A stretch of 64,000 nucleotides of DNA from Zygotorulaspora mrakii. Its lineage: Eukaryota; Ascomycota; Saccharomycetes; Saccharomycetales; Saccharomycetaceae. The stretch is taken from positions 1,347,210-1,411,209 of the forward strand of contig NC_050720.1 in assembly GCF_013402915.1 (NCBI RefSeq), read 5' to 3'. How positions within the stretch are numbered: position 1 is the first letter of the stretch; each line of letters starts with the position of its first letter. The position numbers and the translations under genes are program-made. The notes under the pieces are model-generated. The model saw nothing but the letters and a program-made list of their open reading frames with translations. It was not told where the DNA came from and ran no database searches. Positions 3,628 through 64,000 of this stretch are shown in pieces.

Positions 3628-6600
3628 ATGGCTAAAAAGGGCAAGAGCAGCTCAAGCACGCAAGCTGTTCAGAAAACTAATAATTCGAAAAAACAAGCCA
3701 GGAGTAAAGTAGATGAGATCAACGAAACCGATTGCAATCCGAAATTAAAGCAGCAAGCTAACAGGGCCAAGGTGACTTCATCCACGAGCTGGACGGGTAA
3801 GTTGCCTCATACACTATTGCATGAAGCGTGTCAGAAAAGAAAATGGAACAAAGTCGAATATGACATGAAGAAAATAGGTGACAAAGGTATGCTTGCCATT
3901 GCTGTTATATCATGGACCAATCCTAAAACCAAGGAGGTGATAATGATCAAGTTGAATGATCCTACTTATGATAAGTTGAGCGACAAAGGCATTTTAGTAC
4001 CGCAAGAGACCCCGATGGAGGCAAGACATTTTGCTGCCACTGTAGCCTTGTATCGGATTTCTTATCATAACAACTTGCATATGATGCTACCACCAAATCA
4101 TAAAAAGCTTTGGTATGAATTAAGTGCTTATCGAACGGAGTTGATGAAGCACAATCCAAAGCGTGCTCAAAAATTATTTGATGTAGATCCATTCAAAGCA
4201 GTATTAGAAGACCGCAAGGAGAAAGAAAAGAATCGGAAGGAACAAGATGCGAGATTCAATCAGGCAAAAAAAGAGATAAAAGCCCCTGTTCTTGTTTCTC
4301 ATACTAAGAAAGCCTTTAGCGAAAATGCAAGCAAGGAGGTCAATTTACTGGATAGAAATAAAAAAATAACATCCGTGAGTTTTCCGAAAAAGGTTTGGGA
4401 GAATGCACCATTCATTGATCTCGATGAATCCTCAAGGCAGGCAATTGAATCCTCTTTGAAAGTGTACATTAATTGGTCACAAAAGAAATTAAATTCAGAT
4501 CACATTCATTCTTCGGATCGCGAAAACTTGAGGCATAAATTATTATCGCTTAGCTTCAGAGTACCACATGTGGAAGAGGCAATGCATTATAAAGATCCAA
4601 TATCGTTTCTGCTTTTCAATTTACCAGAAGACGATTTACCTGCATTTTTCCACAAAAGGAGAGAAGATTCAAAAGTCGTTGTTCAGATCTCTTCTTTGCC
4701 ATTATCTGTGAAAAATAGTATTGAAAGGCTGGTTGAGAGTGGTGTTTCCCGAGATGAGGCTTGGTTTGCGTTAGAAAATTCGAATATGAACGAAGGCGAG
4801 GCCGCTGGGAAATTATTGAACATTGTTTTACCTGGGATGCAATTTAGCCAGGAAATATTGATCTCGGAGGAAGAGTCTATTGAAATATGGAATGAGGAGC
4901 TAGAAAGTTTGAAATCGATTTATGAAAATCAAGTTGAGATCATCAACCCTGATGCCTGCTATATCATTCAACTTATTCCAAAATTAAAACTTAAATTAAA
5001 AGTTTATAGAACAAAGAGCTATCCTTCAACTTTGCCCGGAATAATAGTATCGACTTTTGATAGGAATTATAAGTTGCCGGATTATATCAAACACCAAATT
5101 CTAATAAAACTACTCCAATTCATCACAGAAAACCAACTACTGGGTGAAATGCTTGTGTACCAGATATATGAATGGCTGGTATCCAACTTGGAAGAAATTA
5201 TCGAAAACCCAGGACCATTGCTTTCTGAAGAAGAAGTGCAGATTTCACTTGAAAATAATGGCAGAAAGCATCAGGAAAGAAATACGGATTCTAGGATTAG
5301 ACAAAATCGTAGATTTGGAACCGCTAAAACTCTGAATGACAATGAAACGGCTAGACTTCAAGAGGAATATTTACGAAGAATAAAATCTGCAGAATTTCTC
5401 CAAATGCAGAACTTTAGATCAAAGTTACCTGCATGGCAAAAGCAAGGTTTCATAATAAATTTGGTAGAGCAAAATGAAGTTATTCTTATAACTGGTGAAA
5501 CTGGATCAGGTAAGTCAACTCAAGTGGTTCAATTCATACTGGACTCTCTTCAAGGAAAGAAGAACGACTTTGGTCAGATTAAGATTATTTGCACGCAGCC
5601 TAGGAGAATTTCAGCTATCGGGTTGGCAGAGCGTGTATCTGATGAGCGTTGTACAGAGTGTGGTGATGAGGTTGGATACATAATTAGGGGTGTGAATAAC
5701 ACGAAGAATACCACACGAATAAAGTTCATGACAACAGGTGTTCTTGTAAGGATGTTACAAGGTGATAAAAATATGCTGAAGAATACTATTGTTGTCATTG
5801 ATGAAGTTCATGAGAGATCTATTGGCACGGATTTAGTCGTCATTTTGCTGAAAAATTTACTGGGTAAGATACCGGGTTTGAAAATTGTACTAATGAGTGC
5901 AACAGTTGATGTGAAGGCTTTTGAGGAATTTTTTCCCAGGCTAGGTAGATGCCACATTGAAGGTCGAACTTTCCCTATCAAAGATTATTTTTTGGATGAT
6001 GTCTTAGAGAAATTGAATTTCAAAATAAAGATTGATAAGTTTCAAGAAAACTCGGATGAAGATTCTTACGAAATAGAGCGTAAACCAAATGCAGATTCAA
6101 GGTTTTTCAGAACAGGTCAGATCAATTATGATTTGATTCGGCAATTAGTCCAGCACATTGACGCACAATTGCAAAATGAAAATGATGATGGTTCAATTAT
6201 TGTTTTTCTACCTGGTGTGGCAGAAATCAATAGATGCTGTAAGATGATATCAAGCGGCAATAATTCGAATAATTTTGTAGTTTTACCTTTACATTCAGCA
6301 CTTACACCAGAGGACCAGAGAAAAGTGTTCAAGAAGTTTAGCGGTAGGAGAAAAGTAATTGTTTCAACAAATATTGCGGAAACTTCCATTACAATTGACG
6401 ACTGTGTTGCTATAATAGATTCTGGCAGATCCAAAACCATGTTTTACAATCCTCGTGATAATACAACACGATTAGTGGAAAACTTTATTTCGAAAGCAGA
6501 AGCAAAGCAACGTAGAGGTCGTGCTGGTAGAGTTCGAGAAGGTCTGTGTTATAAGCTATTCTCTAGGAAACTCTATGACGAAGAAATGATACCAATGCCT

Positions 6601-54800: not shown

Positions 54801-55600
54801 TTTGCGGAGCATGCTTTTCTTCCTCATAGGGCATTTTTTTGCCTGGTTGCGTTTTTGACGGTGATACCAGCATAAATGATTTTTTGGCAGCGGCGTGTTA
54901 ACTATGTGAAAAGATATAGGTGGTGGTGGGAGCGCGTTTTTGGTGAAATTGTTTTTTTTGCGAAAACGAAGAGCAACAAAGCTGGAACCTGACACATTAT
55001 TAAAGATCTTAGTGGTATATGTCAGGCTGTAATTTGGGCTCACGAAAGTACTCTTTGAGCAGTGCAGAGTCACCTAAACTTTAGGAGATATCAGGGCATA
55101 AAATACATTACTATGTATGGACGTGATAAAGGCGGTAGTTACAGCATTAACGTGACAAAGGCGGTGGTAGGGGTTTTTCGTGAATATGAAGCGCTGGACC
55201 ATCGAAACTTGGCGGGCATATACAAGTGAGTTGCAAGTGCTCTAGCCCACAAATTGAGGCCGGTGGCTTGCAGATTGCGCTCTGGAGAGGCAGCCAAACT
55301 TGAAACAAGATGTATGTATAAAACTGCAAGCAGACAAGCTTCAGCATATTTAGCAACCTAAAAATGTGGATGAGGAAAGGGGCAACTATGTTGAGAAATT
55401 TCAAGTGAACAAGAAGTGTATTCGATGAGCCATGGTGATTCTCGTAGCACATGAGGAAACTAGTGAAACGATCATCAGCAACGAGGAATATTTTTTTACC
55501 GCGAGCTGGCTGTAAGGCGAAGAGTGACGGAAATGAATGTGATGTGTGTTGTGTAAAACGCGAGAAGAAAAGAAGGAACGAGTGGGGATGAGTGATGCAA
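51868..55600. other. Subtelomeric gene-less region, ordinary composition
   Basis: 3.7 kb without a supported gene; the longest frames (for example 54576-55073 and 55147-55614, minus) have no family features. Base composition is still fairly ordinary at the left and turns purine-rich on the plus strand towards the right. CGGCCGG at 54063-54069 is a short palindromic GC patch. Confidence 0.5.
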
Positions 55601-57287
55601 AGGACTGGTAACATGAAGGTTAAGTTAGATAAAAAAGTAAAGAAAGGGTTGAGTTATGAAAAAATGGTGGGAAGAGAGGAGGAGGATTAGTGAAGTAGAT
55701 GCTTTGATATACAGGGATGATAGGAAAGACTGGTTATTTCTGATGGCAATGAACAGTTGCTGTTAGGTTAGCGAGACACCGTAGGGAAGATGTAATAGGG
55801 TAGTGGCTTCGAGTGAGAGGCTGGTAAAGCATGATGATAATATTACTTGTAAAGTGAAGAAGTATTTATGAGGGAATGGAATGATTGAAACAGGGTCTAT
55901 TATTTTAGTGAGTACGTTGGTAAGGAGGCCATGGATGATTTTGTATCGCAAGGCGGCATGTATGACTAGTCAACGATCTCCGGCTGTTGGTAGTCCTTGC
56001 TATACTGTGTGCATAAGCAGGGGATGTTCACGATATGATGGGGAGCATACTACCAGGGTACTACAAGTTTGAGGAGAATCTCAGAGGCTTAAGGACGGAT
56101 GTCGAGGATTTGATGAACTTGCGGAATAATGGGTGGTACCTGATGTTTTCGAAGCGAAAACGTGTGTAACGTAATGTGTGATCTGGAGATAAGAGAGTGT
56201 ACAAAGCATCATAAGATATGCTGTGGAGCTGGTGGTGAGATCCAAAGGGACAGTCATAGAGTAGAGATAAATGCGCATATAACGGTATATAATATGTAAC
56301 GAAAACGAGTGATCTGAGGGAGTTTGGTTTTGCCATTTTTTCGATATAGTCGTGTATTTCTGGCGAATGGTTTGCCTTTTGGTGATGGAATATTATGAAT
56401 CTACATGGAAAAACTCACGTTATTCTATGGTATTCGTGTCACACACTCAAAGTACATGGTCCTCGAGATAGCAAAAAAATCAAATTTCAAAAAAAAATTT
56501 GCTAACACGCGATTATTTTATGTTGGGTAGGGATTTCTCAAAATTTAAAAAGGTGAAAAGTGTCGAAAATGAAAAAGAAGTAGTAAAATAGAGAGAAATA
56601 GTTAAATAAAGAAGTATACCTTTGAGTTTTTTGATGTGAAGTTGATATTGGGGGATATATAGAGGGGCAAAGAGGGGAGATGTGTGGGTCTAACGTCTGT
56701 TTGTATGGGTTTGTGAGACGAATGTATGGGCGATGGTGTAGAGATGGCTGAATGGGGTACGGAGGTAGATGTAAGGATGGGAGTGGCCGCTTAAAATATT
56801 CTGTTGCGTCAGTGAGAGCTGGTGAGGATGAGTGTGCAGATGTAAATCAAGGAATGTTTTGAGAGTGTTTACATACAGGCAAAGTGGTAAGGATTGATGG
56901 AATGTGGAGGGAATGGTAAACGAGGAGGATGATGGAAGAAGCAGGGCAAGGGAAGTGAAGAGGCAGGGAGAGGGAAGGGAAATATTAAATAAGTGATGGC
57001 GATAGAGAAAGAAATAAGAAACGATTTTAAAGCTGGTCAAAATGCGAGTTTATTGAGAAGAAGCGATGCGTTAAGTGGTGGGATAGTGGGTGAAAAAAGA
57101 GGATAGAAAAAGGGAATGAAGGCTGATTTTGGGAAAGTAGAGGTGAAATGGGGTTATTGAGTGAGTTCGGAAGTGATATAGATTTTAAAAACGGAAAAAA
57201 GAGGAATTATTTGTCGAAATGCGACGGGGTGAAAGTGGTGAGGTAAGGAAGGTAGGGTAAGTGGATGGTAAAGGACGTGAATAAAGA

Positions 57288-57330
57288 AGTGTAAATAAAG
57301 GAATGTAAATAAAGGAATGTAAATAAGATA
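57288..57330 (+). repeat. Short tandem repeat, 14-bp unit
   Basis: About three copies of GTAAATAAAGGAAT in tandem with minor changes. Confidence 0.7.
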
Positions 57331-57499
57331 ATGTAGTTGAAAGTTTGTAATGATAAATTTTAGATACGATTAGGTATGTTTGTAAAGGAATGTGAGAAGT
57401 AAAAGGAAAAAGTTAGCAGGAGTGAGTAGATGAAAGAAGGGAGAATAAAATTGATGTGTCCAATATAAAGTAGTTTGAAAGAAATATGTGGCTGTTATC

Positions 57500-57652
57500 T
57501 TTATCGTTGTTGTTGTTTGTTTTCGTTTGTTTTCGATTGTTTGATGTCAGATGTTTATGTTTATGTTTGTTGTGTTGTTGTTATTGTTATTGTTATTGTT
57601 ATTGTTGTTGTTATTGTTGTTGTTGTAGTTGTTGTAGTTGTTGTTGTTTTTT
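57500..57652 (+). repeat. TTG/TTA microsatellite
   Basis: Tract of GTT, GTTATT and GTTGTAGTT repeats. It breaks the purine bias (pyrimidine T replaces A) while remaining almost free of C. Frames across it (poly-Cys/Tyr in one direction, poly-Thr in the other) are artefacts. Confidence 0.85.
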
Positions 57653-58485
57653 GATGGGAAAAGAAGAAGTTGTTTATGGATCTCGATGGTAAATTAAGGA
57701 AAAGAAAAGTAAGTTGGTAAATGAGGAGAAAAGATGGGGTAGCTGGGGTAATCGGGGAGATAATGTAAGTCAAATATTGGTTATACGTGAAAGAGTGGAG
57801 AAGAAAAGTGTAGTGTATAGTTTAGTAATTGGTTTAGAATAGATAGTTGGTTGAATAATAGAGAAAGAAGTTTGAAGTTGAAGAGAAGAGATAGTTGGTA
57901 AAAGAAGAAGTCAGTGTAGGGTAAAGAAGTAAAAGCGATATAGTGTTGAAAGGAAATGAAAATAATGGATGATTGAAATAAGTTGAGTGTGTGTTGAAAA
58001 GGTTAGAGATGGGAGAAGGAATGGTGAAGAAAGAAGATGTGAAGGTGTAGTGATTAGAGTAGATGTTGAGTTATTGTGGAGTAAAGGGAGGAGAAGGAGA
58101 AAAGTAGTAGAAAAAGATGAAAGAGAAGGGGAAGTAATTGTGAATGTCGAGAAAAGAAAAAAGTAAAATGTTTTTAACGAAAGAAGATGTATAGAAGAGT
58201 AGGGTAGAGGAAATAGATGTAAGGAGTAAGGTATAGTAGTAAAGTAGAAGAAAGAGTGGGGGTAGAAGAGGGAAGGAAGTAGAGTAGTAAGGTAGAAGAG
58301 TTAGAAAGAGAGGAATGAAGAAAGAAGTAAAAGTATGAATGAAAAGAAGTTGGGAGTGTGTTATGTAAAAGTTGAGAAGTAGAAGTGAAGAGGAAAAAAA
58401 AGAAGCGGAGTAGATGAAGAGTGTAGAGGGTGGTTGAAAGTTGAAATGAAGAAAAAGAATGAGTGAGAAGCGAGAAATATGAAAG

Positions 58486-58628
58486 ATGAGGGGAGAAGTG
58501 TAATAGATGAAGAAGGTAGGGGGTGAATGGAAGTTGAATGGAAGTTGAATGGCGAATGGAATTGAAATGAAATATGAGGGGAGAAGTAAAATAGATGAAG
58601 AAGGTAGGGGGTGAATGGAAGTTGAATG
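58486..58628 (+). repeat. Direct duplication of about 55 bp
   Basis: Copies at 58486-58540 and 58574-58628 share GATGAAGAAGGTAGGGGGTG followed by AATGGAAGTTGAATG, differing at only a few positions. A smaller GGAAGTTGAAT duplication lies between them. Confidence 0.85.
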
Positions 58629-58810
58629 CGGATGAAATTGGAATGAGAGCGGTGAGGGAGTGGTATGAAAGATGTGGAAAAGATGGATGGAAAGGAGGGT
58701 GGAAAGTAATGGGTAGCGTGGAAGGTAGGATGAATAGAGAAGGAAAGTGGAATCATAAAGGGTTATGGAGTAAAAGAGATGAAAAGAGTTGAGGGTAGAA
58801 TGAAAATAGG

Positions 58811-58835
58811 CGGTAGGGGAAAGGTGTAGGGGAAA
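58811..58835 (+). repeat. Interstitial telomere-like motif
   Basis: CGGTAGGGGAAAGGTGTAGGGG contains GGTGTAGGGG, the core of the terminal repeat, about 4.7 kb inside the telomere. Confidence 0.6.
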
Positions 58836-58952
58836 GGAAATATGGGATGTAAATGTGAAATGGATAAAAGAAAAAGGGAAATAAAGAGGAAGTGGGGTGG
58901 TAGAGCGTAGTGATGAGAAAGAAATGATGTAGAAAATGGAAGTAGAATGTGA

Positions 58953-59031
58953 AGTAGAACGGGAGTGAAAGGAAGGAGTGAAGTGTAGATGAAAGAGTGA
59001 GGAGTAGAACGGGAGTGAAAGGAAGGAGTGA
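58953..59031 (+). repeat. Direct duplication of about 29 bp, 50-bp period
   Basis: AGTAGAACGGGAGTGAAAGG plus GAGTGA-type continuation occurs at 58953-58981 and again at 59003-59031. Confidence 0.85.
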
Positions 59032-61397
59032 TGTGTAGTATGAAGGAAAAAAAAGAAGAGGGGGGTATGAAGAGAAGGGGTGGTGTAGAGTAGGAGAAAA
59101 GCGTCGGGAGTAGTATGAAGGAAGTATGAAGGAAAAAAGCGGTTAAGTGTAGGTGCGTAGAAGATGAGAGATGGGGAGTAATGTGAAGGAAGTAGAAAAG
59201 TGGAAGAAAGAGGAAAAGTGAAAGGAAGAGGAATGTGTGAAAAAAGGTAGGGTGTAGTTTGAAGAAGAGAGGAAGATGGAATGAAGTTGATGTTTGGGTA
59301 ATAGTGGAAGTGAAAGAGAAGGAAGTTAAATGAAAGTGTGGGGGGGGAGAGTAGTAGAGTAGAATAGAAAGGGAAGTAAGAGAAGAGGTGAGAATGAATG
59401 AAGTGAAAGAGTAATGGGTAGAGTGGGAAAAAATGGGGAAGAAATGGGAAGTTGAGAGTGTAAAAAATGGAAAAGTTGGATGTGAAAAAGAGAATGGGGA
59501 TGATGAAAAGGAGTGGGAAGTGTAGTGTATAAACGAAGTAGTTTGATGGATGGGAAATGGAAGTGTAAGAAAAGGAAAAGTGAAGGAGTAAGGAAGTGAG
59601 TAGGTGTGATGTAAAAGGGAAAAGAGATGAAAATGGAATGTTGGATAGAGTCGAAGAAGATGAAAATAGGAAAAAGAGTAGGAGGGAAAAAGATGGGTGA
59701 TGAAGTAGAATAGATGTAGAAGGGGAAAAGAAGGTGAGAGTAAATGATGAAGTGAGTGAGTAATGAAGAGGAAATGAAGAGAAGAAAGGGAGAAGGGAAA
59801 TGGTGAAGTTTAGAAAAAAGTAAATGTCGGGTATGGGAAAGAGAAAGTTGAAAGAAGTGATGGAGTAGAAAAGCGGAAAATGTGAAGAGATGGTTAGGAT
59901 GAGAGAGTTTTGGAGTTGTAAAAGAGAATGAAAGTAGAGAGAAATGGAAGAGTTAGTAGTGGAGTAGAGTAGAGAAAAGGAAAGGGAAAAGAAGTGAGGG
60001 AGTGAGGGAGTAGGAAGTGGGTAGTGGAGTAGGAAGTGGGTATTGGAGTAGGAGAAGAGGAATGGAAAAGGGAATGAGGATGAGTAGTTGAGTAGATCGA
60101 GGTGATGAAAAGATGGAGTAGAAAGAAGAAGTGATGAGAAGTGGTAGAAATGAGGAAAGTGAAGATGTAAAGTTGAAAAGATGAAAGAATGTGGAGTGGA
60201 TGGGAAAAAGAGAATGTGAAGGGAATGGTTGAGTGAAAAGATGAAAGAAGTATGAAATGTCTGGTAGAAAAGATGAAAAGAGTAGGAGAGAAAAAGGAGA
60301 AAGAAGTAGGAAAAGGGAGTGAGTGAAGAAGTAGAGTAGGGGTGAATGGAATGATGAAAAGAGTGAAGTGGAAAGAGATAGGTGAAAGATGTGATGAGTA
60401 GTTGAGTAGAAGGAAAGAAGTGTATAGAAAAAAGGAAGGTCGAAGTGAAGAGAAAAAGAAAATGGAGTGTGAATGAGAGGTAAAAAGGAATGAGAGTGAA
60501 GTAAAGGAGATGGAATGAATAGAAAGAGGTGAAAGTGAAGGATGAGGGGAGGTGAAAAGAGAATGTGTGTTCGAGTAGAGAAGAAGAGTTGAGGAGAAGA
60601 GGAGAAAGGAAAGAAAGAGAAGAGGAGAGAAGTGGGTAGAGTGTGATGTAGGTGTGAAATGAATGATGAGGGATGAGATGAGTAGTTGAGTGGAAAAAAA
60701 GAAGTGTAGGAGAGGAATAGGAAAGTTGAGGGATGAGATGATGAAAGAGTTAGGGAATGAAAGTGAGAAGGGAAAAGGAGTGGATGTGAAATGGAAAGGA
60801 ATCCAGTTGAGTTTGTGGTGAGGTAGGAGAAAAAAGTAGAAAAGAAATAGGAAAGGGAATGAGTAGTGGAGTAGAGTGGAAGAAAAGATGTAAAAGAGAA
60901 AAAGAAGTGTATGAGAAGATGAAAAGGGTTGGAAGTTGATGTGAAGAGTGAAATGGAGTGGATGGGAGTAGAAAGTAAGAAAGAGTAGTAGAAATAGAGA
61001 AAAAAGGAAAGAGATGGTAGGGGAGTAGAGTAGAGAAAAGAGAGAAGCGGGAGTAGAAATGAAAGTAGAGTTGAAAGTATGAAAAGTAGTTGAAAAGAGT
61101 GAATGTGAGAAAGAAGAAAAGAAGAGAGGGAGTGTGAGAGTAGAGTGAATGGTTGAGAAAAGAGTGGTGATGAAGAGGGAGATGAAATAGGGAGATGGAG
61201 TTGGAGTGAAAAGAAAAGAAAGTTGAGTATGTATGAATAGAGAAGAAAAGATGGAGAGTGAATGAGAGTTGAAGTGAATGGAAGGAGAAAGAAGTTGAAG
61301 TGAATGAAAGAGGAAAAGAGTTTGGTGGGGAGTGTTATGAAGATGCGAAGAGTAGTAGAAAGGGAAAGGAAAGAAATGGAAAAGAAGGAAAAAAATG

Positions 61398-61694
61398 AGA
61401 GTAGTATGGTAGAAAAGTGAAAATGAAAGTGTGTGATGAGGAGAGGAAAGAGCGGAGATGAAAAGAGTTTGGTAGGCGAAAGGTGTAGGGGAATGAATGA
61501 AGGGAAATGGGAGAGAGTAGTATGGTAGAAAAGTGAAGATGAAAAGAGTTTGGTAGGGGAAAGGTGTAGGGGAATGAAGTTGGTAGGAGAGGTGTAAGAG
61601 TAGAATGAGGAAAAAATAAAATAAAGAAAAAGAGAGTAGTATGATAGAAAAGTGAGGATGAAATGAGTTCGGTAGGGGAAAGGTGTAGGGGAGT
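61398..61694 (+). repeat. Threefold module carrying telomere-like GGTGTAGGGG
   Basis: Copies at about 61398-61498 (longer, with an insertion), 61512-61577 and 61631-61694. Each starts AGTAGTATGGTAGAAAAGTG or close to it and ends with GGTAGGGGAAAGGTGTAGGG (first copy GGTAGGCGAAAGGTGTAGGG). Each therefore ends in a piece of the telomeric unit. Confidence 0.8.
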
Positions 61695-62968
61695 GTAATG
61701 GAGTGGAGTGAAATGGATGGAAGTATGTAGTAGAGTAGGGTGTATGTAAAAAGAAAGAAAAAATGAAATGTAAAAGTGAAAATGTATGAAGGATGAGGAG
61801 TGTAGTGAAGTAGAGTAGAAAAGAAAGGATGATGGAATGAAAGAGAGTGAAGAAAAAAGATGTAGTTGAAAGTGAAAAGGGAGTGAGGAGAAAGAGTAAA
61901 TGTCGCGAGTTGAGTAGTAAAAAAGGAGTAGATGTGTAAAATGAGGTGATGAAAAGATGGAATAGAAATGATGAATGTATGAGAAGCGTGGTATGAATGG
62001 TGTATGTAGATGTGAAAACGAAATGTGAGAGTGAAAAGAGAGAGTAGAATGAATGAGTGTGTAGTGGAGCGTAAGGCGAAATGAAAAAGAGATGAAGAGA
62101 GTAAATAGAAAGAGTGTGTAGTGAAGTAGGGGAGAGAAGTTGAGTAGATGTGTGAAAGGAAATGGGTGGTTGGTAGCGTGGAAGAGATGAAAAGTTTGGA
62201 TGTTGGTGTGGGAATGAGGGAAGGTGGGAAGAGAGAGTGGTTGAGTGGAGTGAAGAATGAAGTGGGAGTAGAAATGAAAGAGAAAAGAGAAAAGATGAAA
62301 AAGATGTGTGGTAGTTGAAGAGTAGAGAAGATGAGAGTAGTGAAAGGAGGGAGTGAGGAGGTGTGAGTGATGAAAAGAATGAGATGAAGGTAGGATGAGT
62401 TGTGGAAGTGAAGAGTGAATGTGAGTGAAAAGTGGGGGAGAAAGAAGAAAAAGAAAAGAAGAATGAAGTGGTGAGTAGAGAGAAAGGAGTGGAGAGTTGA
62501 GTGAGTGGTTGAGAGAAAGGAGTGGTGAAGAGTAGGGGAAAAAGGAGAGTGTAAAGAGAGAAAGTGATGGAAAATGGAAATGTGGTTTGAGTGGAATGAG
62601 CGGATGGGAGGGAAGTGAAGTAGAAGAAAGGAAATGTATGAATGTATGAGTGTATGAATGGAGGTGGAGGTGGTGAGGAATGTTGAAGTAGAGGAGCGGA
62701 TGGAAGAAAGAGAAGGGAAAAGGGAAAAAGAAAAAGAAGCGTGGTGTATGGTAGAGGTAGAATGAGGTGAAGAGATGAAGAAGTGTTTGGGGGTGAATGT
62801 GAGATGAATGAAAAGGATGTGAAAGTGTATGAATGAGAGATGGAAGTGGGATGAAGAGGTGAAAGAAGTGATGTGTAAGTGGAGTGAGGGGAGAGGGATG
62901 GTGAAGTGGTGATGAAAGTAGGAGGGGAAGTAGAAAGAAGAAAGAAGAAAGGAAGAGAAAGTGAAATG

Positions 62969-63015
62969 TAGTTGTGTAGTTGTGTAGTAGTGTAGTAGTG
63001 TAGTAGTGTAGTAGT
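62969..63015 (+). repeat. Tandem TAGTAGTG repeats
   Basis: About six copies of an 8-bp unit (TAGTTGTG, then TAGTAGTG), 550 bp inside the telomeric array. Confidence 0.85.
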
Positions 63016-63565
63016 AAAAGGGTGAAGAAAAGGAGTGTGAGAGTGTGTTGTAGTTGGAGAATGGGGAAGTGAGAGTGGAAATGTGAAAAAGAGTGTTGAG
63101 GAAATGGGAAGTGGAGGAGAAAGTGGTAGGGGTGTGGAGTATGGGAGTAGTATGGTTGGAGAATGGTGTAGAGGAGTGAATGATGGAAAAAAAGAAAAGT
63201 GGAAAGGGAAGTCGAGAAAAAGAGTGAATGAAATGTGATGTATGGTTGAAGATGGTGAGGAAATGGGAAATGGGAATGAGTGATGTGATGAAAAAAGAAA
63301 AGAGAGGGGGAAAGGTGTGAAAGTGAGGTGGTAGTGGTGGTGGAGTGAAAGGAGAGAGTGAAGTGGAAATGAAGGAATGTGGAGTCGTGTGAAATGAGAA
63401 ATGGAAGTGAAGAAAAAATGGAAGGGTGGAGGAAGATGTGAGAGTAGGGTGTGTAAAGTAAAAAAAGAAAAGAGCGAAAAAAAGAATGTGAAATGAATGA
63501 GAGATGTGAGAGTGTAGGGGTGTATGAAATAGAAAAGAAATAGAAGGTGAAAAATGGAAGAGGGA

Positions 63566-64000
63566 GGGGAGCGGTGTAGGGGAGCGGTGTAGGGGAGCGG
63601 TGTAGGGGAGCGGTGTAGGGGAGCGGTGTAGGGGAGCGGTGTAGGGGAGCGGTGTAGGGGAGCGGTGTAGGGGAGCGGTGTAGGGGTGCGGTGTAGGGGT
63701 TGCGGTGTAGGGGTGCGGTGTAGGGGTTGCGGTGTAGGGGTGCGGTGTAGGGGTGCGGTGTAGGGGTGCGGTGTAGGGGTGCGGTGTAGGGGTGCGGTGT
63801 AGGGGTGCGGTGTAGGGGTGCGGTGTAGGGGTGCGGTGTAGGGGTGCGGTGTAGGGGTGCGGTGTAGGGGTGCGGTGTAGGGGTGCGGTGTAGGGGTGCG
63901 GTGTAGGGGGTGCGGTGTAGGGGTGCGGTGTAGGGGTGCGGTGTAGGGGTGCGGTGTAGGGGTGCGGTGTAGGGGTGCGGTGTAGGGGTGCGGTGTAGGG
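63566..64000 (+). repeat. Telomeric repeat array, 13-bp unit
   Basis: Homogeneous tandem array reaching the window edge, about 33 units. Nine units GGGGAGCGGTGTA (63566-63682) are followed by units GGGGTGCGGTGTA, with 14-nt variants GGGGTTGCGGTGTA at 63696 and 63723 and one with an extra G at 63906. The G-rich strand runs 5' to 3' towards the right edge, as expected for a right chromosome end. Each unit pair contains TGTAGGGGTG, one base off the core of the Rap1 site (TGTATGGGTG), so Rap1 binding is likely. Telomeres of this yeast family use long, species-specific repeats copied from the telomerase RNA template. Confidence 0.95.

What the first reader, a model, noticed from the sequence alone, without database searches (positions are those of the whole stretch)
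57961..63540. 5.6 kb of subtelomere almost free of C on one strand
By hand count about 45 C occur in 5,580 nt of the plus strand (about 0.8%), while G, A and some T make up the rest; stretches of several hundred bases lack C completely. It borders the telomeric array with the same G-rich strand polarity. The known parallel is the shorter purine-biased R element of K. lactis subtelomeres. The length and near-total exclusion of one base are unusual and suggest a strand-specific mutational or repair process, selection, or origin from telomere-like repeats.
Basis: partly seen in the sequence, partly recalled or inferred. Interest (0 to 1): 0.88.

Follow-up and report, generated by a model that had tools for sequence, protein, structure and literature searches.

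The report
C-free, unfoldable strand at yeast telomeres
Next to its telomeres this yeast carries about five thousand bases in which one DNA strand almost lacks the letter C and cannot pair with itself; a filter on new mutations still seems to keep it that way, perhaps to protect chromosome ends that become single-stranded.

Summary
The window is a contig end of an unidentified Saccharomycetaceae-like genome. 10 of 16 nuclear contig ends reach the 13-nt telomeric array; all 10 carry the element with the same polarity. A probe from its last 1 kb matches those ends only.

It is more than a base bias. 41 of 45 C are CpG, and T must touch G: ATT is at 0.02 of expectation, AAT at 0.91. The telomere-ward strand has almost no self-complementarity: pooled over ten ends' last 3 kb, 0 of 1,460 distinct 7-mers has its reverse complement present.

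Differences between copies show a filter on the product: CpG variants occur at the normal rate, CpA/CpT/CpC variants about five times less (p = 2e-8). That favours selection or biased copying over C-to-T erosion.

Best reading: a longer, stricter analogue of the K. lactis R element (recalled), spread by end-to-end recombination and kept unfoldable because this strand becomes single-stranded. Against it: a parallel-complement control is depleted equally, so pairing is not shown to be the direct target.

The parts
58070..63564 (+). Strict terminal element: telomere-ward strand with under 1% C, C almost only as CpG, T almost always touching G, no lasting self-complementarity. Inner edge approximate; it lies 3.5-5.5 kb from the array depending on the chromosome end
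   Evidence: C count, CpG context, forbidden-word profile, trinucleotide o/e, reverse-complement counts
55500..58070 (+). Inner transition zone: C falls from about 6% to 2%, no CpG preference and ordinary predicted folding further in; homologous between several ends
   Evidence: 250-nt counts, CpG fraction by distance, fold energy 6-9 kb from the array, alignments
57567..57648 (+). TTG repeat inside the transition zone: poor in C but rich in T, so C loss there is not purine enrichment
   Evidence: tandem repeat finder, sequence
63565..64000 (+). Terminal telomeric array, 13-nt unit AGGGGTGCGGTGT, about 33 copies; innermost units have A instead of T before GCGG. Its only C is also in GCG
58813..58832 (+). 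Example of the telomere-like core GTAGGGG (two copies); 15 copies lie between 59 and 5,057 nt from the array
   Evidence: 15 found, 2.7 expected from a second-order model
58411..58626 (+). Local tandem duplication (88-nt period, 2.4 copies): one mode of growth and turnover of the element
   Evidence: self-comparison

Best explanation
This is a terminal subtelomeric repeat, one copy next to each telomere, spread and homogenised between chromosome ends by recombination. Its telomere-ward strand is the one that ends 3' at the chromosome end: it stays behind when the end is resected, invades when one end copies another, and is the lagging-strand template for the fork that runs out to the end. I propose that copies whose strand can anneal to itself or to another end's like strand are lost (fold-back, dicentric, stalled fork) and replaced by copying from ends that cannot. 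This makes a steady, selection-like fixation bias against C (which would pair with the abundant G) and against AT-only words with a complement present, strongest at the tip. SHOWN: composition and rules, presence at 10 of 10 telomere-reaching ends, mosaic homology with a fresh junction on one end, near-absence of self-complementarity, and suppressed CpH variants. INFERRED: that strand annealing is the property selected, that the level is the end copy rather than the organism, and that single-stranded exposure is the occasion.
For: Same polarity at 10 of 10 ends and no other match of the last 1 kb. In the last 3 kb of each of ten ends, 4-mer reverse-complement pairs number 37-204 against about 2,590-2,820 in composition shuffles, and no 7-mer pair exists; pooled, 0 of 1,460 distinct 7-mers. 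Watson-Crick stems of 5 bp or more in the last 1.5 kb of the window's end: 0, against 76 in composition shuffles and 1,625 in ordinary DNA. Inverted self-hits by BLAST: none. AAT and ATT are the same duplex read on opposite strands, yet stand at 125 and 1, so the constraint is on a strand, not on the duplex. Variants: CpG-type 41 per 1,549 sites and CpH-type 9 per 2,472 in the element, against 29 per 1,412 and 61 per 3,410 in normal subtelomere (Fisher p = 2e-8); variants that change the count of avoided words are 47 of 243 against 36% expected from the neutral spectrum. Avoided words become rarer, and copies more alike, towards the tip. On the C8 right end ordinary DNA joins the middle of the element directly, as expected if a broken end copied another. 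Literature: uncapped yeast telomeres give up to 15 kb of single-stranded DNA of this strand (PMC2577886, passages), and inverted repeats in such DNA fold back and make dicentric chromosomes even when 30 kb apart (PMC10164571, abstract and passages).
Against: Parallel-complement pairs, which cannot form a normal duplex, are depleted as much as reverse-complement pairs (k4: 346 against 359 in 4.3 kb), so antiparallel pairing is not shown to be the direct target. A second-order local model explains most of the depletion: k4 observed 618 against 1,026 +/- 551 simulated, and dinucleotide shuffles already fold as poorly (-3.7 against -3.5 kcal/mol per 300 nt). The rule is directional (TAA 0.25 but AAT 0.91; CT 0.12 but TC 1.69), which pairing alone does not predict; TTT, whose partner AAA is the commonest triplet, is only halved. 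Two ends (C4R, C6R) keep the rules for only about 3.5-3.75 kb and have 26 and 22 ATT in 4.3 kb, against 0-3 at the other eight. No reads, transcripts or related species could be examined.
Confidence: 0.4

Rival explanations
1. Mutational erosion: the telomere-ward strand is repeatedly single-stranded, and damage to its pyrimidines, C above all, is fixed by translesion synthesis. The bias is a scar without function.
For: Right strand, and the right length scale: single-stranded tracts of more than 6.4 kb and up to 15 kb at uncapped telomeres, with 33 of 34 substitutions within UV-induced complex mutations at pyrimidines of the unresected strand (PMC2577886, passages). Oxidants and sulfites hit C in such DNA (PMC3799438, abstract; PMC6527239, abstract; PMC3521656, passages). 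C sites vary more than others between copies: CpG C 0.36, other bases 0.07-0.15.
Against: Those agents give mainly C to T, but T is 18% here against about 30% inside, and C/T is only 17 of 50 C variants. The rare CpH C are not less stable than CpG C (9 variant to 13 conserved, against 41 to 65; small numbers), whereas the gain of CpH is suppressed.
Confidence: 0.2
2. RNA-level selection: a TERRA-like transcript running towards the telomere must lack structure and the signals for cleavage, termination or internal starts (pyrimidine followed by A, T-rich and TATA-like words), while transcripts from the other strand are stopped.
For: The rule is directional and strand-specific: avoided words are CA, CT, TAA, ATA, ATT, TTA; predicted RNA folding is -3.5 kcal/mol per 300 nt against -62 in ordinary DNA. 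The link of these words to yeast processing signals is recalled.
Against: GTAG, which resembles the Nrd1 motif (recalled), is common; no expression data; folding is explained by dinucleotide composition.
Confidence: 0.15
3. Founder effect: a purine-rich, C-free seed grew by slippage and local duplication, was copied to every end, and has simply not had time to gain C.
For: Gap openings per mismatch are four times higher than in normal subtelomere (0.30 against 0.073) and internal direct repeats are common. In clean columns, minority-C sites (20) outnumber sites where a majority C was lost (4).
Against: A and G are well mixed and the order is complex (best cross-validated model 1.46 bits per base); a seed without constraint would not suppress CpH variants while admitting CpG variants.
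Confidence: 0.15
4. Degenerate telomeric repeats left behind by earlier chromosome ends.
For: GTAGGGG 15 against 2.7 expected, reversed control GGGGATG 1; the telomeric unit has its pyrimidines in the same contexts, GTG, GTAG and GCG.
Against: 42% A; 7-mers with the unit's C occur 0-1 times each; the telomeric unit is only 62% purine plus A-free G runs, against 81% purine here.
Confidence: 0.06
5. Assembly artefact or contaminant.
For: Six of 16 nuclear contig ends lack telomeres and one contig holds 2,500 N near its left end.
Against: Ten ends, with copies 83-99% alike in mosaic order, run on into chromosomal DNA.
Confidence: 0.03

Closest known systems
R element of Kluyveromyces lactis subtelomeres (Nickles and McEachern 2004; title and content recalled, text not seen)
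   Same: Next to the telomeric repeats, shared by most ends, strongly purine-rich on the G strand (recalled). PMC3486848 says that a subtelomeric sequence is shared by 11 of 12 K. lactis telomeres (passage).
   Different: Here 3.5-5.5 kb instead of about 1.5-2 kb (recalled); C nearly excluded and only as CpG; trinucleotide rules; measured near-absence of self-complementarity. Homology untested.
Telomere-ward G enrichment at Encephalitozoon cuniculi chromosome ends (PMC4704409, passages)
   Same: G excess on the strand read from core to telomere, which the authors relate to replication and transcription asymmetry.
   Different: There a skew over gene-bearing repeats and rDNA, with reversing A/T skew; here a gene-free stretch with near-total loss of one base.
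TelKO element of Naumovozyma castellii (PMC6778800, abstract and passages)
   Same: Telomere-proximal subtelomeric element that can be copied between ends.
   Different: About 220 bp with a short internal telomeric sequence; no strand bias was found by searching the text for it.
S. cerevisiae Y' and X elements (recalled)
   Same: Subtelomeric, homogenised by recombination.
   Different: Y' carries a helicase ORF; here no ORF of 200 aa or more ends beyond 51843.

Membership tests
K. lactis R element (features recalled) | Lies directly inside the telomeric repeats at most ends | tested here: met
   10 of 10 telomere-reaching ends; 6 of 16 ends not testable
K. lactis R element (features recalled) | Strong purine/pyrimidine strand bias, purines on the G strand | tested here: met
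   81% purine in the reported interval; last 4.3 kb of all ten ends 77-81%
K. lactis R element (features recalled) | Homologous between ends of one genome | tested here: met
   83-99% in mosaic blocks; mean pairwise identity 0.95-0.98 in the outer half of the alignment
K. lactis R element (features recalled) | Length about 1.5-2 kb | tested here: not met
   3.5-5.5 kb by the forbidden-word profile
K. lactis R element (features recalled) | Sequence homology to the K. lactis element | not testable with these tools
   no yeast nucleotide collection is held; other species could not be searched
Scar of single-strand DNA mutagenesis | Excess C to T on the unresected strand | tested here: not met
   C/T 17 of 50 C variants against 52 of 90 in normal DNA; T low. 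Variants are unpolarised
Degenerate telomeric array | Bulk built from diverged telomeric units | tested here: not met
   only the GTAGGGG core is enriched; C-bearing 7-mers 0-1 each
Self-complementarity avoidance | Reverse-complement words depleted beyond composition | tested here: met
   ratio 0.06 at k4, 0.01 at k5 against composition shuffles; ten ends
Self-complementarity avoidance | Antiparallel depleted more than parallel complement | tested here: not met
   both depleted equally
TERRA-producing subtelomere | Telomere-ward transcript | not testable with these tools
   no RNA data

The most novel reading that the evidence does not exclude
Chromosome-end DNA under copy-level selection for a strand that cannot anneal to itself or to any other end: a foldback-proof code, kept by continual replacement of self-complementary ends through recombination and visible as a CpG-only, G-touching syntax with a strictness gradient towards the tip.
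Probability: 0.27. Interest if true: 0.88.

Novelty: new variant of a known kind. Interest (0 to 1): 0.72.

Why it matters
If right, it would show that chromosome ends evolve under a rule set by their single-stranded life, and would turn the fold-back instability known from laboratory telomere mutants into a force that shapes natural genomes. Even without the mechanism, a sequence of several kilobases that excludes one base on one strand, with measurable context rules and ten diverged copies in one genome, makes the old question of why some yeast subtelomeres are purine-biased testable. I found no description of such context rules in the searches, which cover open-licence papers only.

Tried and rejected
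Coding: on the telomere-ward strand the longest stop-free frame is 65 codons; on the other strand all three frames are nearly stop-free (892-1,214 codons) with at most one ATG each, which follows from the lack of G and of TAA there. No frame-specific pattern was sought beyond a weak period-3 value of 3.6 times the mean power. I reject a gene.

Avoidance of pyrimidine dimers: TT is 0.53 but GTTG and TCG are tolerated, so it does not fit.

G-quadruplex avoidance: G runs of 3 or more are 85 against 157 in shuffles, but quadruplex motifs are 1 against 2.2 +/- 1.5: inconclusive.

Duplex stability: rejected, because AAT and ATT are the same duplex but 125 against 1.

Species identity: a homologue of Spp382 had a full match only in an unnamed source and its best named match was Torulaspora globosa at 42%; mitochondrial COX2 at best 92%. 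Not identified. The telomeric unit was not found in papers as a yeast telomere (two papers, unrelated by title) nor in viral contigs (0). The telomerase RNA template was sought by pattern; the listed matches (first 100 of 150) are all at contig ends.

A multiple alignment of the last 4.5 kb is unreliable inside about 2.9 kb, so polarised counts use the outer part only, and other counts use pairwise blocks with 4 matching nucleotides on both sides. Those are distinct 9-letter contexts, not independent events. Rows dropped there: blocks under 200 nt or under 80% identity, variants with mismatched or gapped flanks, and stretches of intermediate C content.

Full report
OBSERVATION. A is 42%, G 39%, T 18%. 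C falls gradually from about 55.5 kb. The next feature outward is a 13-nt telomeric array at 63565-64000.

WHERE IT IS. The window is G000:C2:1347210-1411209, the right end of contig 2 of a 10.45-Mb genome in 9 contigs. Contig 9 is mitochondrial. Proteins of the window are fungal: a homologue of Spp382 matches Torulaspora globosa at 42% among named records, and a mitochondrial threonyl-tRNA synthetase is present. I did not identify the species.

OTHER ENDS. Of 16 nuclear contig ends, 10 reach or touch the array and all 10 show under 1.5% C over most of the last 3.5-5.5 kb, with the same polarity; the other 6 do not reach a telomere, and one of them ends in 18S rDNA. A probe from the last 1 kb matches exactly those 10 ends; the search engine skips simple repeats, so other degenerate copies cannot be excluded. 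The ends are mosaics of blocks 83-99% alike, and mean pairwise identity rises from about 0.6-0.8 inside to 0.95-0.98 in the outer part of the alignment. On the C8 right end, ordinary DNA joins the element about 4.5 kb from the array, in its middle.

TWO ZONES. Over ten ends, in distinct sites, C is followed by G in 0.75-1.0 of cases in eight of nine 500-nt bins up to 4.5 kb (0.50 in the bin at 2.5 kb), and in 0.17-0.26 further in. Words that are avoided (C before A, C or T; ATA, ATT, TTA, TAA) number 0-9 per 250 nt in the outer 3 kb, rise to 14-17 at the edge and to 20-50 inside at most ends. In the window's last 4.3 kb there are 65 against 412 in shuffles. The strict zone is about 5.5 kb at five ends, 4.5-4.75 kb at three and 3.5-3.75 kb at two (C4R, C6R), which also hold 26 and 22 ATT in 4.3 kb against 0-3 at the other eight. 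The inner zone lacks C more mildly, without these rules, and its strand folds like ordinary DNA (-57 against -62 kcal/mol per 300 nt).

SYNTAX. In the last 4.3 kb of the window's element the observed-to-expected ratios are ATT 0.02, TTA 0.10, ATA 0.15, TAA 0.25, TTT 0.46, TAT 0.47, AAT 0.91, GTA 1.30, ATG 1.74, GTG 1.89, AGT 2.00 and TGT 2.05. Dinucleotides: TG 1.58, GT 1.49, CG 2.29, CA 0.10, CT 0.12, TC 1.69. A second-order chain describes the sequence best (1.458 bits per base, cross-validated, against 1.941 for normal DNA). AAT and ATT are the same duplex, so the constraint acts on one strand.

STRUCTURE. In 3 kb at each of ten ends, 4-mer reverse-complement pairs number 37-204 against about 2,590-2,820 in composition shuffles, 6-mer pairs at most 1 against 61-79, and 7-mer pairs 0. 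Pooled over the ten ends, 0 of 1,460 distinct 7-mers, 5 of 739 6-mers and 14 of 329 5-mers have their reverse complement present; in two ordinary 3-kb pieces 1,953 of 2,643 6-mers do. In the window's last 1.5 kb the only reverse-complement 4-mer is at most one palindromic word (the printed zero hides a half count). Predicted RNA folding is -3.5 kcal/mol per 300 nt. Controls against a pairing cause: parallel-complement words are depleted equally, local second-order statistics account for most of it, and dinucleotide shuffles fold as poorly.

CURRENT EVOLUTION. Between copies, with four matching nucleotides on both sides, C-containing variants number 41 before G (1,549 contexts) and 9 before A, C or T (2,472) in the element; in normal-composition subtelomere 29 (1,412) and 61 (3,410); Fisher p = 2e-8. 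In the clean part of the ten-way alignment 20 minority-C alleles arose from T (8), A (6) and G (6), 19 of them in CpG; 4 of 11 majority-C sites had lost C in some copies. Variants that alter the number of avoided words are 47 of 243, against 36% expected when the normal-zone spectrum is applied. CpG and CpH C that exist are equally variable (0.39 and 0.41, 22 CpH contexts in all). C/T makes up 17 of 50 C variants against 52 of 90 outside (p = 0.008). Suppressed gain plus moderately raised loss is the pattern of a fixation bias; hypermutable C would show normal gain and much faster loss. The counts are distinct contexts, not independent events, and the comparison zone is small. Gap openings per mismatch are 0.30 against 0.073: the element turns over by small insertions, deletions and local duplications.

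MECHANISM. By established knowledge this strand ends 3' at the tip, remains after resection and is the lagging template of the outward fork; forks at telomeres run one way from an inner origin (PMC5368702, passages). Uncapped yeast ends expose up to 15 kb of it (PMC2577886, passages). Inverted repeats in such DNA fold back, cause dicentric chromosomes and do so across 30-kb spacers and up to about 25% divergence (PMC10164571, abstract and passages). An end that cannot self-anneal escapes that fate and can serve as donor to broken ends; the C8 junction looks like such a repair. This accounts for strand, gradient, homogenisation and product filter. It does not account for the direction of the rules (pyrimidine then G), for the mild loss of TTT, or for the equal loss of parallel complements. 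I hold it at 0.4. Mutational erosion, RNA-level selection and a founder seed remain open.

COMPARISON AND VERDICT. The closest known kind is the K. lactis R element, recalled only; position, sharing and purine bias agree, length does not, and homology is untested. Telomere-ward G enrichment is also described at E. cuniculi ends (PMC4704409, passages). I file this as a new variant of a known kind: a real, genome-wide feature of this yeast's ends, with context rules and an ongoing filter for which I found no description.

Noticed in passing
58516-63520: The telomere-like core GTAGGGG is scattered 15 times through the element against 2.7 expected; possible telomeric remnants or protein-binding sites.
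   Followed up: partly
57469-57660: A TTG-rich block lies in the C-poor transition zone, poor in C but rich in T.
   Followed up: no
63565-64000: The innermost telomeric units carry A where the outer ones carry T (GGGGAGCGG against GGGGTGCGG); other ends show further variants.
   Followed up: no
L014 (contig 6, left end): The contig ends inside an 18S rRNA gene, with a 5S rRNA gene nearby.
   Followed up: partly
L017 and L027 (contig 9): The 37.6-kb mitochondrial contig repeats its start after 27,143 nt (one 50-nt probe found twice; same atp6-like ORF at both ends), so the circle may be about 27.1 kb; the ungapped overlap is only 67% identical, so an indel or divergence remains.
   Followed up: partly
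L026 about 4970-5070 (contig 8, right end): Ordinary DNA joins the middle of the C-poor element directly, as if a broken end had been repaired from another telomere.
   Followed up: partly
L016 (contig 8, left end): 2,500 N within the first 10 kb of the contig.
   Followed up: no
element: Before G, transversions between A and T are unusually common between copies (33 contexts against 12 before other bases); the telomeric units show the same A/T exchange.
   Followed up: no
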